This document shows, in pieces, positions 5,020-47,013 of a stretch of 48,942 nt of DNA. The DNA is taken from assembly GCA_035506535.1 (NCBI GenBank), contig DATJPE010000082.1, positions 1 through 48,942 on the forward strand, written 5' to 3'. A model generated the notes under the pieces. The model was not told the DNA's origin. It saw only the letters and a list, made by a program, of their open reading frames with translations, and made no database searches. The position numbers and the translations under genes were made by a program. The stretch comes from Actinomycetes bacterium. GTDB lineage: Bacteria; Actinomycetota; Actinomycetes; DATJPE01. Each line of letters opens with the position of its first letter. Within the stretch, counting starts at the first letter, position 1.

Positions 5020-5583
5020 TCAGCCGTTGAAGGCGTTCTGGGCGGCCTCGAGGCCCTGCTCGATCAATGCCTCGACCGCGTCCGCGGCTCGCTCGAGGTG
5101 CACGTCGAGGTCCTTGGCCTCGGCGGCGCTGAAGTCGCGCAGCACGTACACCGCGGGGTCCTGCCGGCCCGGCGGACGACCGATCCCGAACCGCACCCGC
5201 AGGTAGTCGGGCCCGAGCGCGCGGGTGAGCGAGCGCAGCCCGTTGTGGCCGTTGTCCCCGCCGCCCCGCTTGAGCCGCAGCACGCCGTAGTCGAGGTCGA
5301 GCTCGTCGTGGACGACGATGATCTGCTCGGCGGGGACCTTGAAGAAGTCGCGTACGGCGACGACGGGCCCGCCGGACTCGTTCATGTACGAGCGCGGCTT
5401 CGCGAGGACGACCCGCTGGCCCGCGATGCGACCCTCGAGCACCTCGGCCCGGCCCTTGTGCGCCTTGAAGCACCCGCCGAGGCGTTCGGCGAGGACATCC
5501 AGCACGAGATGCCCGACGTTGTGCCGGTTGGCGACGTACTCCGGCCCGGGGTTGCCGAGACCGACGACCAGCCAGGGGTCCAG
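5020..5583 (-). CDS. pth: Peptidyl-tRNA hydrolase (CTG start)
   Basis: Pth releases peptides from peptidyl-tRNA that drops off ribosomes. From CTG at 5583 the product is 187 aa, the normal family length, and opens [23 protein letters not shown] with the catalytic His in NRHNVG; later come [18 protein letters not shown] (catalytic Asp) and [12 protein letters not shown]. Between an in-frame stop inside rplY and the conserved Trp there is no ATG, GTG or TTG. The CTG at 5583 has GGAGG (5595-5591) 7 bases upstream; CTG 5589 is the alternative. Starting at the first ordinary start codon would delete the active-site His. The gene begins two bases after the rplY stop, so the pair is one transcription unit. 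Confidence 0.93.
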
Positions 5584-5585
5584 GG

Positions 5586-6206
5586 TCAGGCCTCCTCGGC
5601 CGTCGCCGCCTCGGCCGGGGTCTCCGCCTCGCCCTCGGCGCCCTCGCTCACCTCAGCCTCGACGACCTCCGCCTGCGGCGCGAGGACGTGGACGACGAGG
5701 GTCTCCGGGTCCAGGAGGAGCGTGACGCCGTCCGACAGCGCCAGGTCGCCCGCGTGGACCGCGGTGCCGGGCTCGGCGCGGTCGAGGTCGACGACGATCT
5801 CGCTCGGGATCGCGGTGGCCGACGCCTCGACGTTGATCGTCGTGTGGGCGAGGTCGAGGATGCCGCCCGACCCGGGGGTCCCGGTGACGCGCAGCGGCAC
5901 CTCGACGCTGACCCGCTCACCGCGCGTGACGATGACGAGGTCGACGTGCTCGAGGGTGAGCCGGACCGGGTCGCGCTGGACCGCCTTGGGCAGCGCGAGC
6001 TGCTTGCCCGACTCGAGGTCGAGCTCGAGGAGGACGTTGGGGTGCTTGAGGGCCAGCATGAGGTCGTGCTCGGGGAGGGAGACGTGGGTGGTGGCGTTCC
6101 CGTGGCCGTACAGCACGGCGGGCACCTTCGAGCCGCGCCGCAGCCGTCGGGCCGCGCCCTTGCCGAACTCGGTGCGGGACTCGGCGGCGATACGGAACTC
6201 GGGCAT
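5586..6206 (-). CDS. rplY: 50S ribosomal protein L25/CTC (TL5 type)
   Basis: L25 binds 5S rRNA in the central protuberance. The 206-aa protein is the long CTC/TL5 form: an N-terminal L25 domain (residues 1-90, with [14 protein letters not shown] and the [15 protein letters not shown] stretch) followed by a beta-rich C-domain ([40 protein letters not shown]). The last 30 residues are an acidic Glu/Ala tail, common in actinobacterial versions. ATG at 6206 starts MPEFRIAAE and has GGAG about 9 bases upstream. It lies downstream of prs and is joined to pth at the other end. Confidence 0.96.
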
Positions 6207-6390
6207 CGGGGTCGCTCCTGTCGTCAGGCGGTACGTGCGCCGCGCGGCGTACGGCGACAGCGTCCACTGACGACCGCGTCGATCACGAAGTCGCGACGCT
6301 GCGGCGCCGCCCTCCCTCGCCGGGGCGCCCCTGAGGATACGGGACCCCTGCCGCGCCCCCAAACCGCCCACCTCCCGCCGCCCGCCCCTG

Positions 6391-6452
6391 TCTTTGGAAT
6401 GAACGCGGCGTTGTGGCGCTAGGTATGCAACAACGCCGCGTTCATTCAAAGA
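6391..6452. repeat. Dispersed palindromic repeat, family 1, copy 1
   Basis: A 22-bp stem with one bulged G: the left arm 6391-6413 contains GAATGAACGCGGCGTTG and the right arm 6431-6452 its complement. The 17-base loop contains TAGGTATGCAA. It lies between prs and rplY and could end or attenuate the transcript, but no U-tract follows. A second copy is at 12609-12657, with the same stem core and the loop core TAGGTNTGCAA conserved. Confidence 0.9.
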
Positions 6453-6483
6453 AAAGGGGGGCAGAGGACGAGGGGTGAGCTGG

Positions 6484-12496: not shown

Positions 12497-12608
12497 GGCC
12501 TCCGCCTCCGTTTCCCTCCGCTCCCCCGCCGCCTGCCGCGCCCGCCCCCTGCCGCCTGCCGCCTGCCGCGCCCGCCCCCCGCCGCGCCCTACTCCACCGA
12601 CTCTTCCG

Positions 12609-12657
12609 AATGAACGCGGCGTTCTTCCAATAGGTCTGCAAGAACGCCGCGTTCATT
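12609..12657. repeat. Dispersed palindromic repeat, family 1, copy 2
   Basis: An 18-bp perfect stem beginning AATGAACGCGGCGTT (12609-12626 with 12640-12657) and a 13-base loop holding TAGGTCTGC. It is the second copy of the element at 6391-6452. Here it lies between two divergent genes, so it cannot be a simple terminator for either. Confidence 0.9.
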
Positions 12658-31056: not shown

Positions 31057-31101
31057 GTGGAGCTGAGGGGATTTGAACCCCTGACCCCCTCGATGCGAAC
31101 G
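31057..31101. repeat. attL: duplicated 3' part of tRNA-Ala
   Basis: 45 bases identical to 38807-38851. They correspond to the tRNA from the anticodon stem to the acceptor end. The 5' half of the tRNA is missing here, so this copy is the scar of integration. Left of it, the chromosome reads as a 3' end of C-A-A rather than CCA. Confidence 0.95.
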
Positions 31102-31304
31102 GTAAAACGGACACCTCCCGCCGTCGCGAGCCCCGATGTCGCTAAGGTCAGAACCCTTGTAATGACTTCATAAATGGCCGCTCAGAGATGTCCAGTGTTG
31201 CTTCGTGTCGCCTCGCACCATCTCACCCGGCGAGGGTCAAATGAGGGTCAAGGACGCCTACACTCGACCCGGAGCAAGGCGCGCGGGACTGGAGGTGAGC
31301 CGCC
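31102..31304. other. Non-coding lead between attL and the integrase
   Basis: Holds a tandem AGGGTCAA pair (31233-31253) that is also present near the right end. GGAGGTGA, the ribosome site for the integrase, is at 31291-31298. An ATG at 31241 opens a frame different from the integrase and is probably not used. Confidence 0.6.
31233..31253. repeat. Left copy of the end-proximal AGGGTCAA tandem
   Basis: Two AGGGTCAA units 11 bases apart, in the same orientation. A 21-base stretch matches 38730-38750 with one difference. Lying 132 bases inside attL, it could be an arm-type integrase or excisionase site. Confidence 0.65.
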
Positions 31305-32642
31305 CTGGGCCACTCACGCAGACGGCGCGGCCGAGACGGTCAGCCCCGCTTCACTGCCTACTACGACGATGGCCGGGGTCGCCGCCGCTCCGCTGGGACC
31401 TTCCCCAGTCAGAAGGCCGCGGACAAGGCGTGGCAGCAGGCCGAAGCCCGGGTCGCCGAGGGCCGTGGTGGCCAGAGCCAGCGCGGCCGGCTCACCTTCG
31501 AGCGATACGTGCGCGAGGAGTGGTTTCCGAACCATGTGATCGAGCTGAGCACCCGCCAGAACTACACCTACTGCCTTGAGCGGAACGTGCTGCCGTTCTT
31601 CGGTGAGTTCCGGATGGTCGACGTCATGCCGGGCGATGTCCGCGAGTGGGTAACTGGCTTGCAAGCCGCTGGGGTGAAGCCGCCCACGATCCGCTACGCG
31701 ATGACCGTGCTCTCCGCGGTCTTCACCACCGCCCTCAACGACCAGATCACTTTCCTGCACCCGTGCATGGGCGTGAAGACCCCAGCGGTTGCCACGAAAC
31801 GCCGGCGGATCATCACCCCGGAGCAGTTCGCCGACCTGCTCGCCGCGCTGCCGTCACGTGAGTTGCAGCTGCTGGTGGAGACCGACATCGAGACGGGGCT
31901 GCGCTGGGGCGAGCTCATCGAGTTGCGCAAAGGTGACATCGACTGGGACACACGAGTGCTCACGGTCTCACGGGTCGCAGGGGAACTCGCGTCCCGGTTC
32001 ACCCCTGACGGCCAGCGTTTCTTCGTCAAGGCCTACCCCAAGGACACCGAATGGCGGGCCCTCACCCTCTCCACTCACATCGCGCGACAGCTCGAAGCTC
32101 ACGCGGCGCCCCTCGGAGACGACGACCTGCTGTTCCGCGCGCCCCATCCCGTCGGAGCCGCTCGCCGGCGCCGACCCGAGACTCTGCCCGACCCCGTCAC
32201 TTTGGGCGTGACCGCTCCGAACGAGTTGGGTCGCTGCTACCTGCACGGCACCCTCTCCGCCTACAGCGCCGGGAGATGCCGCTGCCAGTACTGCAAAGAC
32301 GCAGTCGCCGCCTACCGAGCCCAACGCCGCGCCGACGGCAAGGACCAGCCGAGGCGACCCCGAACTTTGGACACCGACGGCCACATCCCCCGCGCCTGGT
32401 TCCGTCAACAAGTCTGGACTCCCGCACTTCGAGCCGCCGGTGTCGGGTTCCACGTCCGCTTTCACGACCTCCGACACGCCCACGCCTCCTGGCTGCTCGC
32501 CGGCGGAGCCGACATCCAGATCGTCAAAGAACGCATGGGGCACTCAAGCATCACCACGACTCAGAAATACCTGCACACGCTCCCTAACGCCGACCAAGCG
32601 GCCGTCACCGTGTTGGACGCGATGCGCAGGGGCGCTGTCTGA
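31305..32642 (+). CDS. int: Tyrosine-type integrase with CTG start and Cys-rich insert
   Basis: Catalyses site-specific recombination at the tRNA-Ala. From CTG at 31305 the protein is 445 aa, opening LGHSRRRRGRDGQPRFTAYYDDGRGRRRSAGTF, the AP2-like arm-binding domain of this family. The core-binding helices follow (LSTRQNYTYCLERNVLPFFGEF). Catalytic residues are all present: Arg in ETGLRWGEL near 200, His and Arg in FHDLRHAHASWLL near 387, and the nucleophile in TTTQKYLH near 420. GGAGGTGA ends 6 bases before CTG; the frame has a stop at 31296 and no ATG/GTG/TTG before 31509. Residues about 305-355 hold a Cys/His insert (CYLHG...CRCQYC). Confidence 0.92.
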   Translation: MGHSRRRRGRDGQPRFTAYYDDGRGRRRSAGTFPSQKAADKAWQQAEARVAEGRGGQSQRGRLTFERYVREEWFPNHVIELSTRQNYTYCLERNVLPFFGEFRMVDVMPGDVREWVTGLQAAGVKPPTIRYAMTVLSAVFTTALNDQITFLHPCMGVKTPAVATKRRRIITPEQFADLLAALPSRELQLLVETDIETGLRWGELIELRKGDIDWDTRVLTVSRVAGELASRFTPDGQRFFVKAYPKDTEWRALTLSTHIARQLEAHAAPLGDDDLLFRAPHPVGAARRRRPETLPDPVTLGVTAPNELGRCYLHGTLSAYSAGRCRCQYCKDAVAAYRAQRRADGKDQPRRPRTLDTDGHIPRAWFRQQVWTPALRAAGVGFHVRFHDLRHAHASWLLAGGADIQIVKERMGHSSITTTQKYLHTLPNADQAAVTVLDAMRRGAV

Positions 32643-32653
32643 CCGGCGCGCTG

Positions 32654-33997
32654 TCAGCGTCCGATGACGAGGCCGGCCGCGTGATACGCGACAACGCAAA
32701 GTAGGACGAGCGCTAGGGGCCACAGCAGCCGCGGACGATGGCGCCATATGAGGAGGGCCCCGACAGTAACCACCGCTAGCTTGGCACCGAAGCCCACAAG
32801 ACGAACAACGGGGTTCGCCTCAGCGACGCGATGCGATGCGATGCCGACCCAAGTGGCAGCTGCATCAACTCCGTTGGCAGCAAGCAGGATCGCGAGCGCC
32901 AGCATGATTCTCGCGCTGAGGGACTCACAGAACACCAAGCAAGGAAACGCAACGACTGCCGGGATTGATGTTGTAACCGCCGCCCAGGTGAACGCGGCTC
33001 CGCTGGTTCCCGCTACCGACTGCGGTGCGCTGAACGGATGCCCATCAAGGACTGTGTCCGCGCCCGTTGGCACGAGACCGCGCCACGACAGCCACTGCCA
33101 CAACGTCAACACCGCAATCGTTGCGACGGCGGCCGCGACTATTCGCAATCTGCACCGAAACCCGTCGCCAGGCATATACAGGGCGGCCCCGGCCCCGGCA
33201 GCTCCGATGGCCAAGGTGGGAAGCATGCATCCAAGCCAGCCTGGCACGTCACCGGCACGCCCGAGCACTGCGTTGGTGGCAACCATTGACACCAACCAAA
33301 GTAGGAAGGCCGTGGTGGCGACAGCGGCGAGGCGAACCTCCCGAGACGGAGGCTTAGATGGAGGTGCCCCCTGGGCGGGGACGATCGCTCGTGACCCGGT
33401 GATCGCCTTGCATGCCGTGAATGCCAAGAGCCAGACCAGTCCGAAGTCAACAATCGGCGCCAGCAGACCTGACACCACCACCGCCGCGTTGGACCGCTCG
33501 TGCCAACCTTGGTAGTGCTCCCATCCGTGAGAGATTCCAGCTGGCCAGCCAGGAAGCCGCCCACTCGGCGATGTCCGGTCCCGGTGAACCAGCGCGACAG
33601 TGATAGCGAGCGCGATCGCGGAAGCCAACCTAGGGGAAGGCAGGTGTCCACGTATGGGAATTTGAGCTGCGCTAATGGCGATTGCCGTCGCGACGCAAGT
33701 CCAGAATGCAATCGATGCTAGGTCGTAGCGGAATCCATGTCGGAGCCAGTCCCAAGCAGGCGTCTGATAGCGGTAGCTCGCAGGTGGCAGGGATGCCGTG
33801 TGCGTGTAGAGAAGGCACTGCAAGAGCACCCACCCCAACATTGACGCAGGCAGGATTACACCGCTGGCCCAAATCCGGCGCCAGTCCTTGCCCAACCGCC
33901 AGGTCGACGCCGACAGGGCCCCCGAACCAACCGTCACATACTGGTCATCGGTACATGTGCGGTCTGTCTGTACCGGTCTATCTGTACCGGTCTGCAC
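32654..33997 (-). CDS. Polytopic membrane protein with DUF5658-like C-terminus (element cargo)
   Basis: A 447-aa protein with about nine membrane helices and a long, polar central loop. The last 80 residues (ANGVDAAATWVGIASHR, then VAEANPVVRLVGFG and two helices) resemble DUF5658. The function is unknown. The first 20 codons are the 14-bp repeat region at 33960-33994, so the true start is probably the GTG at 33937. It converges with the integrase, with 11 bases between the two genes. Its composition is less GC-rich than the host genes. Confidence 0.7.
   Translation of the reverse strand: MQTGTDRPVQTDRTCTDDQYVTVGSGALSASTWRLGKDWRRIWASGVILPASMLGWVLLQCLLYTHTASLPPASYRYQTPAWDWLRHGFRYDLASIAFWTCVATAIAISAAQIPIRGHLPSPRLASAIALAITVALVHRDRTSPSGRLPGWPAGISHGWEHYQGWHERSNAAVVVSGLLAPIVDFGLVWLLAFTACKAITGSRAIVPAQGAPPSKPPSREVRLAAVATTAFLLWLVSMVATNAVLGRAGDVPGWLGCMLPTLAIGAAGAGAALYMPGDGFRCRLRIVAAAVATIAVLTLWQWLSWRGLVPTGADTVLDGHPFSAPQSVAGTSGAAFTWAAVTTSIPAVVAFPCLVFCESLSARIMLALAILLAANGVDAAATWVGIASHRVAEANPVVRLVGFGAKLAVVTVGALLIWRHRPRLLWPLALVLLCVVAYHAAGLVIGR
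33960..33994. repeat. 14-bp iterated repeat at the membrane gene start
   Basis: TCTGTACCGGTCTA and TCTGTACCGGTCTG follow head to tail (33967-33994), preceded by a half unit (33960-33966). Each contains the palindrome ACCGGT. They lie where the promoter or operator of the membrane-protein gene should be. Iterons for replication are an alternative reading. Confidence 0.7.
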
Positions 33998-34262
33998 GAG
34001 CGGGGCGAGCCGCCGCGAGAGTAGTTCCCCCTCACCCGAGGATCATCGCTGCGCCTGGCCGACGCGACCACCTTCGTCACTTGGCCTGAGTGACAAGTTT
34101 CACCCGTTCGGCGTAGCCTCCTGGCCGTGGCGCTCGAAGGGGCGCCGCTTCACGAAGAAGCAGCCGATCCAAAACAAGTACTGCGCATAACTCGAATTCT
34201 GCTTGTGCAGCATAGCCACGCAACAAGTTTCTTCAGAAAACCATTCGATACCGGAGGCGAAT
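33998..34262. other. Divergent intergenic region, low GC
   Basis: No supported gene. The GC content falls towards the right. It must contain promoters for the leftward membrane gene and the rightward secreted protein; I cannot place either with confidence. CCGGAGG at about 34251-34257 is the ribosome site of the latter. Confidence 0.5.
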
Positions 34263-34769
34263 GTGACACCAAATTCGATCAGCGTAGAAAGTCCAATGGA
34301 CCCTGGAATTCGCGAACGAAGCCGGAGAACTCACAAGTCATTGTCGGCGCTTACCGGTGTCGTCGTGACGGCAATGCTGGCCGTCCTCGTACCGGCCGTT
34401 AGCGCGCAGGCAACCTCGTACGGAGATCAGACGGTTTATGGAGTGCCGAGTTCCGCACAAGAGGCATCGTTCGACAATTCCTCCGGAACCGGAGAGGGCG
34501 TCTTCTTTATAGTGGGCGGTATCCGGCTCTTTGACGAGCAAGACGGCACTGTCATCACAGACACCTCAGGGCGCGAGGAGACCATCTGCACGACTACTTC
34601 GGGCTCACGAGTCTCTCCATTTTCCTTCTACAGCGGTGGCTGGTACAGCGGGCATACCCTTGGCGTCGTTTACTTTGACAACACAAAACCAAGCGGTGAT
34701 GCGCACTCTTACGTTTCCTGGAATGGTCACAACTGGCAGATATCTGGAGCCACCAACGCGCATAGTTGA
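34263..34769 (+). CDS. Small secreted protein of unknown function (element cargo)
   Basis: From GTG 34263, 5 bases after GGAGG, the product is 168 aa. A 30-residue polar leader (VTPNSISVESPMDP...) is followed by a Sec signal: SALTGVVVTAMLAVLVPAVSAQA, cleavage expected after AQA, near residue 50. The mature part of about 118 aa is rich in Gly, Ser, Thr and aromatic residues (FFIVGGIRLF, YSGGWYSGHTLGVVYF, YVSWNGHNWQISG) and has one Cys. No family recognised; I considered lactococcin 972-type bacteriocins and rejected them. GC is near 50%, well below the host, so it is foreign even to the element. Confidence 0.7.
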   Translation: MTPNSISVESPMDPGIRERSRRTHKSLSALTGVVVTAMLAVLVPAVSAQATSYGDQTVYGVPSSAQEASFDNSSGTGEGVFFIVGGIRLFDEQDGTVITDTSGREETICTTTSGSRVSPFSFYSGGWYSGHTLGVVYFDNTKPSGDAHSYVSWNGHNWQISGATNAHS

Positions 34770-34973
34770 TAGTTCTAACAACCCACCAATATTCGTCGAA
34801 TCTGAGGAGGCTATTGCTAAGCCAGGCCGTCAACGGCACCCCGGGGCGATCGCTGCACCGACTTGCCTGGTTCGTAGTCCCGAGGACGTTGTGATCAGCG
34901 TGGCGTGAGCGGATAGACGAAGACCTCCGGTACGGAGGGGGTTACCACACCAACCCTCGCCCGGAGGTCTTCG
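34770..34973. other. Intergenic region ending in an IS-type inverted repeat
   Basis: No gene supported. CGAAGACCTCCGG (34918-34930) and CCGGAGGTCTTCG (34961-34973) form a 13-bp hairpin immediately before the transposase remnant; its TTG start abuts the right arm. Similar hairpins precede IS481-type transposase genes, as I recall them. Confidence 0.6.
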
Positions 34974-35270
34974 TTGATCCACGCCAACGCCCCGCTGACC
35001 CCGATCGGTCGTCAGCGCCTCGCCGAGTCGATCGTGGTGCACGAGTGGCCGGTGCGTCGGGCCGCCGAACGGTTCCAGGTGTCGTCGGCGACGGCGTCGA
35101 AGTGGGCGGCGCGCTACCGCGATGGGCTGCCGATGACCGACGCGTCCGCGGCGCAGCCCGTCTCGCTGCCCGCGACGGCTGAAATGGCGGATCGTCAAGC
35201 TGCGGTACTGCCGACGGTAGGAGCCGCACCGCATCGCCGCATCCTCGGTGTGCGCGGGCCTCAACGGGGA
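34974..35270 (+). pseudogene. IS481-type transposase remnant
   Basis: From TTG 34974 the frame reads MIHANAPLTPIGRQRLAESI, then HEWPVRRAAERFQVSSATASKWAARYRDG, the N-terminal HTH of IS481 transposases. After MTDAS the sense continues in another frame: RPRRSPSRCPRRLKWRIVKLRYCRR, then a stop (TAG where the family has TGG, Trp), then EPHRIAA. The rest, including the DDE domain, is absent. So a frameshift, a nonsense change and a truncation are all visible. Confidence 0.85.
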
Positions 35271-35363
35271 ATGGACCTCTGGCGTCAGACATGTGCATCG
35301 TGGGTGCTACCGTCGAAGCCGGAAACCGTTGTCCCGTAACGTGATTCTGGTTGGTGTCGGTTC

Positions 35364-38249
35364 GTGTTGTCCAGTGCGAAGATCGGCCGATCGTCGTGGC
35401 GGTACTACCAGGCCACGGTCGCTGGCGGTGCGTGCGAGTACTACAGCGAGAACGGGGAGGCGCCCGGCCGCTGGCACGGCAGCGGCCTCCCTCAGCTTGG
35501 TCTGCTGGCGGGCGGGGTGGTCGAGGAGCGGGAGCTGGAGGCGCTGTTCGGGCGCGCCCTCTCCCCGTCCACGGGCGAGCAGCTGGGTGCGGCGTGGGGC
35601 GATCGGTCGGTCACCGGGTACGACCTGACGTTCTCCGCCCCGAAGTCCGTCAGCGCCCTCTGGGCGCTCGGTGACGGGCACTGGGTGACGGAGATCGAGA
35701 CCGCGCACGCCGCCGCCGTGAAGGCGGGTCTGGACTACCTGCAGCAGGTCGCGGGGTACTCCCGGCGCGGCCGCAACGGCATCCACCAGGTCCCGACCGC
35801 CGGGTACACGGCCGCGTTGTTCGACCACGGAACCTCCCGCACCGGAGACCCGCAGCTGCACACCCACGCCCTGGTCGTGAACAAGGCGCGCTGCGCCGAC
35901 GGGGCGTGGCGCACCCTGGACGGGCACGAGGTGTACCACCACAAGAAGGCCGCCGGGGCGCTGTACCAGGCGGCACTGCGCGCCGAGCTCACCCACCGGC
36001 TCCCCGTCCTGTTCGGGGACGTCTCCGAGCACGGGCAGGCCGACATCACCGCCGTGCCCGAGCAGCTCCTGCAGGCGTGGTCGAGTCGGACCAGCGCCGT
36101 CATGTCGGACGCGGTCCCGACGATCGCCGACGCCGAGGAGGCCCTCGGTCGATCGGTCACCGCGGATGAGCGGGCCCGGATCATCAAGGCCGCGGTCCTC
36201 GCCACCCGACCGCGCAAGGAGCACCACGCCGGCGGCCCGGACCGCCGGACCACCTGGGCCGCGCAGGCCGCGGCGCACGGCATCACGCCGGGGAGTCTGC
36301 TCGACGCCGTGGCAGGAGCGTCGGCGGCAAGCCCTAAGGCAAGCCCCGGCGCAACCCCACCCGTGGCGACACGGCCCGAAGTGTTAGCGCGGGACGCGCT
36401 GCTCGCCGACGCGGTGTCCGTGGTCGGCCGGTCGAAGGCGGTGTGGTCCCGCGCGGACCTGACCATCGCCATCGCCGCCCGGATCGACCGCCTGGATGAG
36501 CCGAAGCCAGCGACCGCAGCCGACACTGTCGCACTGGTCAGCGACCTCACCGACACCGCTCTCGAGGTCGGCCCGGGTGGCCGGAGATGGCGGGCGAACC
36601 GTGGTGTCGGCCCCCTCGGCCGGAGCGGTGTGGTGCCCCTGGGCCTGGACCAGGCCGGCGACACCGCCCGCGCCTCCGACCCCCGGTACGCCTCCGCCGA
36701 GCTGGTCGCCATGGAGGCACGCATCATCGGCCACGCCATGCTGCGCATCCCGCTCACCGCCGCCCGGCTCGCGCAGGCCGCCCTCGACCTCGACGCCGCC
36801 ACCGCGGGCATCGCAGACTCAGGGTCGGGCCTGTCCGCGGAGCAGCGCGAGGCGGCGGTCATGCTGCTCGCCGCCCAGGACCGGATCAGCGTGATGACCG
36901 CCCCCGCCGGGGCAGGGAAGACCACCACGATCGGCGCCGCGGTCCGCGCCTGGCGCGCCACCGGTGTCCAGGTCAGCCTGCTCGCTCCGTCCGCCCGCGC
37001 CGCCGCCGAACTCACCACGGCTGCAGCGGGCGCCGGGGGCACAGGGGAGGCTGGGACCACGGTCGCCCGGTGGCTGCTCACCCATGACAACCAATCCCGT
37101 CGCCGCGCGCCAGGGGGCGGGCGGTCGGTGATCCTGGTCGATGAGGCGTCGATGCTGTCCACCCTCGACCTGGACCGCGTCTTCACCCACGCCGTTGTGA
37201 GCGGCTCCCAGGTGGTCCTGGTCGGCGACCCCGCGCAGATCGGCGCCGTCAACGCACCCGGCGGCATGTTTGCCCACCTCACCGAGCTTCTCGCCCGCGA
37301 TCGGGTGGACCTGAATGAGCTGCACCGCTTCACCCACCCTTGGGAGGCCGACGCGTCGCTGCGGCTACGCGCCGGCGACCCGGCCGCGCTGCGCGCGTAC
37401 CTCGACCACGACCGGATCCACCCCGCCAGCGACATCCAGGACGCCGCCGACGCTGTCTTCGACCGCTGGCAGGAAGTAGTGGACGCCGGGCGGGACGCGT
37501 TGATGCTCGCCCAGTCCTGGGCCGACGTCACGGCCTTGAACACCCGCGCCCGAGCCGCCGCCATCGCCCAAGGCCACGTGCACGGCCCCGATCTCCTGAC
37601 CGTCGTCTCCCGCAGCGCGAGCACCCGCGGGCACCCGGAACCCCGCAGCTGGCGGGCCGGGGACCTGCTCCTCGCGAAACGCAACACGACGAGCATCCGG
37701 CTCGGGCGCCGGCAGCTCCGGAACGGGGACCGGCTCCGCGTCCTCGACGGCGCACCCGGCGGCGGGCTGCGGGTCCAAGCCCTCCACGACGACGCGATCA
37801 CCGACCTGCCGGTCGACTACCTCGCCCGGCACGCCGAGTACGGGTGGGCTACCACCATCGACGCCGGGCAAGGCGCCACCACCGACATCGCTGTCCTGCT
37901 CGCCCGCACCGGACTCGACCGGGAACACCTCTACGTCGCGATGACCCGCGGACGCAACGAGAACCACGTCCACACCACCCCCGAAACCGACACCGGCGAC
38001 GCCGGACCCCACCGCACGCGAACCTCGGCCATCACGGCCGGACCCGTGCCGGTCGACGAACAACAGGCCGCCGTGAGCCTCCTGGCGCGCGCGTTGGCCA
38101 CCTCAGGCAGCGGCCAGGCGGCGCACGCCGTCATCGGCCGTACCCAGACGTCGCGCCAGCGAAGTTTGAGGCTGGCCGCAGACCAGGCGAGGCGCCGCGA
38201 CCCCGTTGTGGCGCCGCCAGGCGACGACACGCGCATGTTGACCCGCTAG
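35364..38249 (+). CDS. MobF (TrwC/TraI-type) relaxase-helicase
   Basis: Nicks oriT and unwinds the plasmid-like form during conjugative transfer. The 961-aa protein has an N-terminal TrwC relaxase domain: two Tyr pairs (WRYYQ, EYYSEN) and GEAPGRWHGSG, GYDLTFSAPKSVSALWAL, and the metal triad in GDPQLHTHALVV near residue 165. The helicase has Walker A TAPAGAGKTTTIG near 515, VILVDEASML, LVGDPAQIGAV and the C-terminal WATTIDAGQGATTD...EHLYVAMTRGRNENH. GTG 35364 is the start. No break is seen, so the gene should work, but no partner coupling protein is nearby. Confidence 0.95.
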   Translation: MLSSAKIGRSSWRYYQATVAGGACEYYSENGEAPGRWHGSGLPQLGLLAGGVVEERELEALFGRALSPSTGEQLGAAWGDRSVTGYDLTFSAPKSVSALWALGDGHWVTEIETAHAAAVKAGLDYLQQVAGYSRRGRNGIHQVPTAGYTAALFDHGTSRTGDPQLHTHALVVNKARCADGAWRTLDGHEVYHHKKAAGALYQAALRAELTHRLPVLFGDVSEHGQADITAVPEQLLQAWSSRTSAVMSDAVPTIADAEEALGRSVTADERARIIKAAVLATRPRKEHHAGGPDRRTTWAAQAAAHGITPGSLLDAVAGASAASPKASPGATPPVATRPEVLARDALLADAVSVVGRSKAVWSRADLTIAIAARIDRLDEPKPATAADTVALVSDLTDTALEVGPGGRRWRANRGVGPLGRSGVVPLGLDQAGDTARASDPRYASAELVAMEARIIGHAMLRIPLTAARLAQAALDLDAATAGIADSGSGLSAEQREAAVMLLAAQDRISVMTAPAGAGKTTTIGAAVRAWRATGVQVSLLAPSARAAAELTTAAAGAGGTGEAGTTVARWLLTHDNQSRRRAPGGGRSVILVDEASMLSTLDLDRVFTHAVVSGSQVVLVGDPAQIGAVNAPGGMFAHLTELLARDRVDLNELHRFTHPWEADASLRLRAGDPAALRAYLDHDRIHPASDIQDAADAVFDRWQEVVDAGRDALMLAQSWADVTALNTRARAAAIAQGHVHGPDLLTVVSRSASTRGHPEPRSWRAGDLLLAKRNTTSIRLGRRQLRNGDRLRVLDGAPGGGLRVQALHDDAITDLPVDYLARHAEYGWATTIDAGQGATTDIAVLLARTGLDREHLYVAMTRGRNENHVHTTPETDTGDAGPHRTRTSAITAGPVPVDEQQAAVSLLARALATSGSGQAAHAVIGRTQTSRQRSLRLAADQARRRDPVVAPPGDDTRMLTR

Positions 38250-38419
38250 GCGCACACCTCCTGACACCACCCGCGATGCGCCGGCACGAGCAGGGCGACC
38301 CTGCGGCCGCAAGACTCGAGGACTGGCGGGCAGTGACCCTCGATGTTCAGGGGTCTCTTTGCACACCTCTAGGTACGGGACGTCAGCCGGCGACCCGCCC
38401 CGTCCGAGAGGAGCAGACC

Positions 38420-38638
38420 ATGACCCGCGACGAGCTCGACCACCTCCCCCCGATGCTCGACGTCCCAGCCGCCGCCCGCGTCCTCTGCATCGGGCGAACC
38501 CTCGCCTACGAACTCGTCCGCACCAACCGCTGGCCCACCCCGGTCCTCCGTGTCGGCAAGCTGATCAAGATCCCCAGCGCACCGCTCCTGAAGCTGATCG
38601 ACGACGGAGGAGCGGACCACCAGCGAGAGTCCGCCTAG
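38420..38638 (+). CDS. xis: Excisionase-like HTH protein
   Basis: A 72-aa protein of the MerR/AlpA-like excisionase type: PPMLDVPAAARVLCIGRTLAYELVRTNRWPTPVLRVGKLIKIPSAPLLKLI. It would bend DNA at the ends and steer the integrase towards excision. ATG 38420 has GAGAGGAG 8 bases upstream. It sits 170 bases after the relaxase and beside attR, far from int, whereas int and xis are usually adjacent in actinobacterial elements. Confidence 0.8.
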   Translation: MTRDELDHLPPMLDVPAAARVLCIGRTLAYELVRTNRWPTPVLRVGKLIKIPSAPLLKLIDDGGADHQRESA

Positions 38639-38729
38639 GAGACGCCGGGGATCGACAGCCCAACGAAGCGCTGACTGATGCGCGCCACCGAGTGAGCGTG
38701 GTCAGACCCGCGAAGTGCCGCCCAGTTCA

Positions 38730-38750
38730 AGGGTCAAACGAGGGTCAAGG
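38730..38750. repeat. Right copy of the end-proximal AGGGTCAA tandem
   Basis: Same 11-base-spaced AGGGTCAA pair as at 31233-31253, same orientation, 57 bases inside attR. Presence at both ends supports a role in recombination. Confidence 0.65.
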
Positions 38751-38804
38751 CCTTGAAGTGCAGCCGCCGGCTGGTGTGCGAATGGCCTCTGACCAGGCCA
38801 TACA

Positions 38805-38881
38805 TGGTGGAGCTGAGGGGATTTGAACCCCTGACCCCCTCGATGCGAACGAGGTGCGCTACCGGACTGCGCCACAGCCCC
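38805..38881 (-). tRNA. tRNA-Ala (anticodon CGC), hosting attR
   Basis: A 77-base cloverleaf. The acceptor is GGGGCTG/CAGCTCC with the G3-U70 pair that marks alanine tRNAs, the anticodon stem is CCTCG/CGAGG, the loop TTCGCAT (anticodon CGC) and the T-arm AGGGG-TTCAAAT-CCCCT. CCA is encoded at 38807-38805. The 45-bp att repeat 38807-38851 covers its 3' part. Confidence 0.97.
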
Positions 38882-46946: not shown

Positions 46947-47013
46947 TACGATTGGCACTCGACACCCGAGAGTGCCAGCCGGCACTCGACACCCGAGAGT
47001 GCCAGCGGCACTC
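46947..47013 (+). promoter_or_regulatory. -10 box and CIRCE-like HrcA sites before fmdB
   Basis: TACGAT (46947-46952) is a -10 box. Directly after it stand GGCACTC-N9-GAGTGCC (46954-46976), a second identical site with the same 9-base spacer (46981-47003), and a half-site GGCACTC (47007-47013). GCACTC-N9-GAGTGC is the core of the CIRCE element bound by the heat-shock repressor HrcA. Confidence 0.8.

What the first reader, a model, noticed from the sequence alone, without database searches (positions are those of the whole stretch)
31057..38851. Minimal mobilizable element: integrase, relaxase, excisionase and two orphan cargo genes
Only an integrase, a full MobF relaxase-helicase and an excisionase-like gene serve mobility. 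There is no coupling ATPase, no replication gene and no pili. The cargo is a polytopic DUF5658-like membrane protein and a low-GC secreted protein on opposite strands. That pairing could be a secreted effector with a membrane partner or immunity protein.
Basis: inference. Interest (0 to 1): 0.7.

Follow-up and report, generated by a model that had tools for sequence, protein, structure and literature searches.

The report
Small tRNA-integrated mobilizable element, MobF family
This is a small DNA element parked in a bacterial tRNA gene that carries its own cut-and-paste and DNA-transfer enzymes but must borrow another element's secretion channel, and it belongs to a previously unlisted family of such hitchhikers in Actinobacteria that share one transfer-start signal and swap their passenger genes.

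Summary
31057-38851 is an integrated element of 7,750 bp bounded by an exact 45-bp repeat; the right copy is the 3' part of tRNA-Ala(CGC). It holds a tyrosine integrase, a DUF5658-ending membrane protein, a small exported protein, an IS481 scrap, an intact MobF relaxase-helicase and an AlpA/Xis-like protein, with no coupling or T4SS ATPase. Three things were missed. (1) Paired arm sites (AGGGTCAANNGAGGGTCAA) flank both att cores. (2) A probable oriT lies 78 bp upstream of the relaxase: CAGACATGTGCAT plus a 3-nt-loop hairpin. The block occurs once in each of 22 related relaxase loci, always 36-100 bp upstream of the relaxase, and nowhere else in 358 kb. (3) The same genome carries a second, decayed sister element near tRNA-Thr. 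So this is one member of an actinobacterial family of MobF integrative mobilizable elements (tRNA/tmRNA sites, interchangeable cargo). A 2017 review says no known canonical IME has a MobF relaxase. The membrane/secreted pair recurs next to the same relaxase in another actinobacterial order, convergent rather than divergent. Membrane homology is firm only in the DUF5658 domain, secreted homology only at the mature termini. An effector/immunity role fits the family's cargo but is unproven.

The parts
31057..31101 (.). attL: 45-bp core repeat (copy of the tRNA-Ala 3' part)
   Evidence: exact repeat of 38807-38851
31233..31251 (+). putative integrase arm-binding site AGGGTCAAATGAGGGTCAA
   Evidence: one of only two copies in the window with up to 2 mismatches, 0 expected
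31305..32642 (+). tyrosine integrase, 445 aa, probable CTG start after GGAGGTGA (31291-31298); conventional start 31509
   Evidence: PF00589 8.7e-21; phrog_1 integrase 1.2e-59 from residue 10 of the longer frame; sequence
32654..33997 (-). polytopic membrane protein (about 10 hydrophobic segments), DUF5658 at C-terminus
   Evidence: PF18902 3.1e-5; C-terminal 87 aa 47% identical to G059 homolog, E 4e-17; hydropathy
34296..34769 (+). small exported protein, 157 aa, signal peptide with predicted cleavage AQA/TSYG (mature part from 34413)
   Evidence: sequence; hydropathy; mature termini shared with the G059 exported protein
34974..35150 (+). remnant of an IS481-type transposase N-terminus
   Evidence: LZ_Tnp_IS481 1.6e-5
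35286..35311 (+). probable oriT: CAGACATGTGCAT followed by a hairpin (GCATC-GTG-GGTGC)
   Evidence: 13-bp block in 22/22 relatives 36-100 bp upstream of the relaxase, nowhere else in 358 kb; hairpin excess 0/5000 shuffles
35364..38249 (+). MobF relaxase-helicase, 961 aa
   Evidence: TrwC 2.5e-75, AAA_30 2.3e-48; NCBIfam MobF
38420..38638 (+). excisionase/AlpA-like HTH protein, 72 aa
   Evidence: HTH_17 0.042; 79% identical sister-element protein with HTH_17 4.7e-5; same place after the relaxase in relatives
38730..38748 (+). putative second arm-binding site AGGGTCAAACGAGGGTCAA
38807..38851 (.). attR: 45-bp core repeat within tRNA-Ala
38805..38881 (-). tRNA-Ala(CGC), integration target, kept intact
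   Evidence: ARAGORN

Best explanation
This is an integrative mobilizable element of the type that brings its own relaxase (iMOB). Shown by sequence: Int and Xis-like genes with a tRNA-Ala att core and arm sites; an intact MobF relaxase-helicase; a conserved site just upstream of it; and no transfer channel. Inferred: Int, with the Xis-like protein, excises the element at the 45-bp core and closes it into a circle, restoring attP and placing xis and int next to each other (attP lies between them). The relaxase then nicks the hairpin site at 35286-35311 (oriT), unwinds one strand with its helicase domain and stays bound to it. A helper conjugative element in the cell supplies the coupling protein and type IV channel. 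In the recipient the circle reintegrates into tRNA-Ala. The membrane and exported proteins are an inherited cargo pair, most likely a surface or secreted factor with its membrane partner; toxin plus immunity is the leading specific guess. Step probabilities: mobilizable element 0.93; motif is oriT 0.8; pair is functionally linked 0.55; effector/immunity 0.25.
For: Exact 45-bp att in tRNA-Ala. Paired arm sites beside both att cores, 0 expected by chance. Intact relaxase with the N-terminal YY...YY tyrosines, the HTH histidine motif, Walker A and Walker B read from the sequence and family hits. The oriT block occurs once per element in 22/22 relatives, always 36-100 bp upstream of the relaxase on the same strand, and nowhere else in 358 kb; hairpin signal 97 against 17 +/- 6 in shuffles. 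Related relaxases lie in 13 of 394 class genomes, with recombination modules next to tRNA or tmRNA genes and other att-bounded examples of 9.4-13.2 kb. A sister element in the same genome sits near tRNA-Thr. The cargo pair recurs beside the relaxase in G059.
Against: No excision, nicking or transfer was observed. The integrase needs a non-standard start codon, or is damaged at its N-terminus. The Xis-like protein is only a weak profile match. No empty site could be compared, because the genome is the only one of its order held. A helper T4SS in this genome was not searched for. For the cargo, only one independent second case of the pair is known.
Confidence: 0.85

Rival explanations
1. It is a decayed remnant of a larger conjugative element (ICE) that lost its coupling protein and T4SS genes.
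For: The IS481 scrap and the low-GC stretch show rearrangement inside the element; the integrase start is unusual.
Against: The same small core (relaxase, Xis-like, integrase, tRNA/tmRNA site) without T4SS genes recurs in several families, with att repeats at 9-13 kb; the relaxase frame is fully open.
Confidence: 0.08
2. The two cargo genes are unrelated passengers that happen to be neighbours.
For: Their relative orientation differs (divergent here, convergent in G059). The N-terminal 350 aa of the membrane proteins show no significant similarity. Most family members carry other cargo.
Against: Both genes are absent from the other related loci tested but sit together beside the relaxase in G059. 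The exported proteins share mature N- and C-terminal ends, 11/20 matches, 0 of 200,000 shuffles (the anchors were chosen after seeing the alignment).
Confidence: 0.4
3. The pair is a surface or entry-exclusion module that keeps related mobile elements out of the cell.
For: It is carried beside the mobilization module; a polytopic membrane protein plus a small exported protein is compatible with known exclusion pairs (general knowledge).
Against: The element has no transfer channel of its own to exclude; no sequence match to any exclusion protein.
Confidence: 0.1
4. The conserved CAGACATGTGCAT hairpin is a transcriptional operator for the relaxase gene, not oriT.
For: It lies 36-100 bp upstream of the relaxase start in every relative.
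Against: An invariant half-site followed by a 3-nt-loop hairpin whose 3' arm varies while pairing is kept resembles relaxase recognition sites; more distant actinobacterial MobF plasmids have a similar ACATTTGCA sequence upstream of the relaxase (read by eye).
Confidence: 0.15

Closest known systems
Canonical integrative mobilizable elements (own relaxase, no coupling protein or T4SS), as reviewed in PMC5704250; 'iMOB' in PMC11389934
   Different: The 2017 review lists canonical IMEs with MobP, Q, V or C relaxases, none with MobF, and only one in Actinobacteria (ATE-1, MobV).
Actinomycete integrative conjugative elements (AICEs, pSAM2-like; PMC3218068)
   Same: Actinobacterial hosts, tyrosine integrase, tRNA target sites.
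   Different: AICEs carry a replication initiator and an FtsK/TraB-type dsDNA translocase; this element has neither and uses a MobF relaxase.
Mobilizable MobF plasmids of Corynebacterium and Mycobacterium (pGA2, pMM23)
   Same: MobF relaxase-helicase, about 37% identical over 60% of its length, typed as mobilizable.
   Different: They are plasmids with replication genes; the exact 13-bp oriT block is absent from the stretches examined.
Pfam DUF5658 (PF18902)
   Same: C-terminal domain of the membrane protein.
   Different: Elsewhere it is found in short open frames of about 90-216 aa; here it caps a 447-aa polytopic protein beside an exported protein. No paper in the library mentions DUF5658.

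Membership tests
Integrative mobilizable element (iMOB) | Encodes a site-specific integrase | tested here: met
   PF00589 8.7e-21; phrog_1
Integrative mobilizable element (iMOB) | Bounded by att direct repeats at a specific target | tested here: met
   45-bp exact repeat in tRNA-Ala; arm sites
Integrative mobilizable element (iMOB) | Encodes a relaxase | tested here: met
   MobF
Integrative mobilizable element (iMOB) | Carries an oriT | tested here: inconclusive
   strong candidate by conservation and hairpin, not shown biochemically
Integrative mobilizable element (iMOB) | Lacks coupling protein and mating-pair formation genes | tested here: met
   ORFs between the att sites and their Pfam hits
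Integrative mobilizable element (iMOB) | Excises and is mobilized in trans by a helper | not testable with these tools
   needs experiment
MobF relaxase family | TrwC-type relaxase domain fused to an SF1 helicase | tested here: met
   TrwC 2.5e-75 and AAA_30 2.3e-48; NCBIfam MobF above cut-off
AICE (pSAM2-like) | RepSA/RepAM/Prim-Pol replication gene and FtsK/TraB translocase | tested here: not met
   none among the element's proteins
DUF5658 protein family | Domain above Pfam gathering score | tested here: inconclusive
   25.1 bits against cut-off 25.2; the G059 homolog passes with 28.4
Toxin-immunity (bacteriocin-type) pair | Exported protein kills cells that lack the partner; partner protects | not testable with these tools
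   no family match; structure models unusable

The most novel reading that the evidence does not exclude
An undescribed actinobacterial family of MobF-driven integrative mobilizable elements with one shared oriT (invariant CAGACATGTGCAT plus 3-nt-loop hairpin), swappable integrases for different tRNA/tmRNA sites and a rotating cargo bay; one cargo type is a new secreted-protein/DUF5658-membrane-protein antagonism or exclusion system.
Probability: 0.3. Interest if true: 0.7.

Novelty: new variant of a known kind. Interest (0 to 1): 0.5.

Why it matters
MobF is a common relaxase type in Actinobacteria, yet the 2017 IME review lists no canonical IME that uses it. A family that shares one recognisable transfer-start sequence gives a search key for hitchhiking islands in Actinobacteria and makes helper-dependence testable. 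Family members carry MerB (alkylmercury lyase), a DNA methyltransferase, toxin-antitoxin-type genes and a helveticin-like protein, so the family moves selectable genes between distant lineages. The recurrent membrane/exported pair is a concrete candidate for a new two-gene module.

Tried and rejected
Same-set search in close relatives: the genome is the only member of its genus, family and order held. Weak hit to the secreted protein in G293: lies in a long open frame antisense to a plausible secreted protein in high-GC DNA, judged chance. Secreted and membrane proteins in plasmids, phages and viral contigs: none. AlphaFold on both cargo proteins, single sequence: pLDDT 33 and 44, unusable, so no fold search was run. 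PDB sequence search: only marginal, uninformative hits. oriT pattern with a perfect hairpin in viral contigs: none. DNA folding of the whole upstream region: not significant; the signal is local. PADLOC and PHROGs: nothing for the cargo. Idea that the integrase is frameshifted: less likely than a CTG start, because a Shine-Dalgarno-like sequence and homology reach residue 10.
Full report
WHAT IS THERE. The element runs from 31057 to 38851. Its two ends are an exact 45-bp repeat. [quoted passage not shown] A second, independent sign of a real attachment site is a pair of 19-bp motifs, AGGGTCAANNGAGGGTCAA, at 31233-31251 and 38730-38748, one on the inner side of each core. Allowing two mismatches there are only these two in 48.9 kb, and none in 100 shuffles. 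They look like the arm-type integrase sites of a phage-like attP. In the excised circle the order is xis, arm site, core, arm site, int.

GENES. The integrase has a tyrosine-recombinase catalytic domain. No ATG, GTG or TTG precedes codon 31509 in frame, but GGAGGTGA at 31291-31298 stands six bases before an in-frame CTG at 31305. The PHROG integrase profile matches from residue 10 of that longer reading. A CTG start is therefore the simplest reading. The relaxase is a full MobF relaxase-helicase with open frame. The Xis-like protein is weak by profile but 79% identical to its counterpart in the sister element, which does match HTH_17. Between the secreted gene and the relaxase lies an IS481 transposase N-terminus. 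No replication, coupling or pilus gene is present.

FAMILY. The same genome has a second element on contig 18, near tRNA-Thr. Its relaxase is 77-87% identical but broken into three frames, its Xis-like protein is 79% identical, its integrase is only distantly related, and it carries a DUF433/PIN-like pair. In a sample of 394 genomes of the class, 13 (this one included) carry relaxases at least 53% identical to the N-terminal domain. Their surroundings show a common plan: relaxase, Xis-like, integrase, then tRNA-Ser, Met, Leu or tmRNA. Three further cases have a detectable second att copy, 9.4 kb (L064, tRNA-Ser), 9.4 kb (L066, tmRNA) and 13.2 kb (L057, tRNA-Ser) away. Cargo differs: MMPL transporter and MerB (L057), DNA methylase (L054), DUF5615/PIN-like toxin gene (L066), nucleotidyltransferase (L052), helveticin-like beta-propeller (L066). 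In the window's element the core lies between xis and int, whereas in the relatives it lies after int: the integration module has been exchanged.

PROBABLE ORIGIN OF TRANSFER. Aligning the DNA upstream of the relaxases shows a block CAG[AG]CAT[AG]TGCAT in all 22 close relatives (window and sister element included), at 35286-35298 in the window. It occurs once per element, 36-100 bp upstream of the relaxase on the same strand, and nowhere else in 358 kb of fetched sequence. It is followed by an inverted repeat with a 3-nt loop, fully paired (G-T allowed) in most of the 22 and with one mismatch in most of the rest, although the 3' arm varies; two show none. The summed score is 97 against 17 +/- 6 in shuffles, 0 of 5000 reaching it. 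MobF relaxases recognise such a hairpin next to the nick (general knowledge), so oriT is the best reading. It is not proven, and the strand and nick position are not assigned. The 22 sequences are related, so the shuffle test overstates independence.

CARGO. The membrane protein has about ten hydrophobic segments and ends in DUF5658. The exported protein has a clear signal peptide and no relatives in any library searched. A sampled genome of another order, G059, carries upstream of the same relaxase type (73% identical, with the oriT block) an exported protein of 128 aa and, convergent with it, a 401-aa membrane protein with the same DUF5658 end (47% over 87 aa, E 4e-17). The N-terminal parts of the two membrane proteins are not significantly alike. 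The exported proteins share the ends of their mature parts (TxYGxxTxYG and GAxNxHS; 11 of 20 anchored positions, 0 of 200,000 shuffles; anchors chosen after inspection), while an unanchored comparison of the mature parts is not significant. The other related loci gave no match to either cargo gene. So the pair has travelled with this mobilization module at least twice, in different relative orientation. That supports a link but argues against a fixed operon. A truncated, frameshifted membrane gene alone lies beside tRNA-Ser on G059 contig 317.

MECHANISM. Shown: site, ends, genes, conserved site. Inferred: excision by Int with the Xis-like protein, nicking at the hairpin, strand transfer through a helper's channel, reintegration in tRNA-Ala. 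The cargo function is a guess by association with the family's other cargo.

KNOWN OR NEW. By definition this is an IME with its own relaxase. The 2017 review of IMEs says that canonical IMEs use MobP, Q, V or C relaxases, none MobF, and lists one from Actinobacteria (PMC5704250). MobF relaxases are well represented in Actinobacteria (PMC3218068) and dominate Mycolicibacterium plasmids (PMC8190616). I found no later paper describing this family, but the library holds open-licence papers only. I rate it a new variant of a known kind.

Noticed in passing
window 32244-32303: The integrase carries an HGTLSAYSAGRCRCQYCKDA zinc-binding-like insert within the catalytic half; the same segment matches PHROG profiles that include an HNH endonuclease family. 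The pattern was not found in the other loci of the family.
   Followed up: partly
L021 (G059:C317) 5171-6459: A frameshifted DUF5658-type membrane gene sits directly behind tRNA-Ser, and an 18-bp piece of the tRNA 3' end recurs at its truncated end, as if an element had been reduced to 1.2 kb of cargo between att-like repeats.
   Followed up: partly
L011 6005-8637 (G000:C18): Sister element near tRNA-Thr with a DUF433/MerR antitoxin-like gene and a DUF5615 PIN-like gene next to the integrase.
   Followed up: partly
L066 9801-10859: Low-GC gene in a tmRNA-integrated relative encodes a beta-propeller protein (Phage_RBD_prop), helveticin J-like by eye.
   Followed up: no
L065 9871-14099: Tandem signal-peptide proteins with a VHTYYVLAGATPVLVHNC-type (pretoxin-like) stretch alternate with small acidic proteins upstream of the relaxase: looks like a polymorphic toxin/immunity array (one frame gave no Pfam match).
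   Followed up: no
L083, L084, L087 upstream of mobF: Corynebacterium and Mycobacterium MobF plasmids have ACATTTGCA roughly 60-110 bp before the relaxase, similar to the ACATGTGCA of this family; perhaps a wider actinobacterial MobF oriT signature (by eye).
   Followed up: no
window 6364-6459 and 12575-12657: Two 83-nt copies (73% alike) each containing an AATGAACGCGGCGTT inverted repeat, far from the element.
   Followed up: no
window 46954-47006: Two perfect 26-nt tandem copies GGCACTCGACACCCGAGAGTGCCAGC, 27 nt apart, each with inverted-repeat symmetry (CIRCE-like or terminator-like).
   Followed up: no
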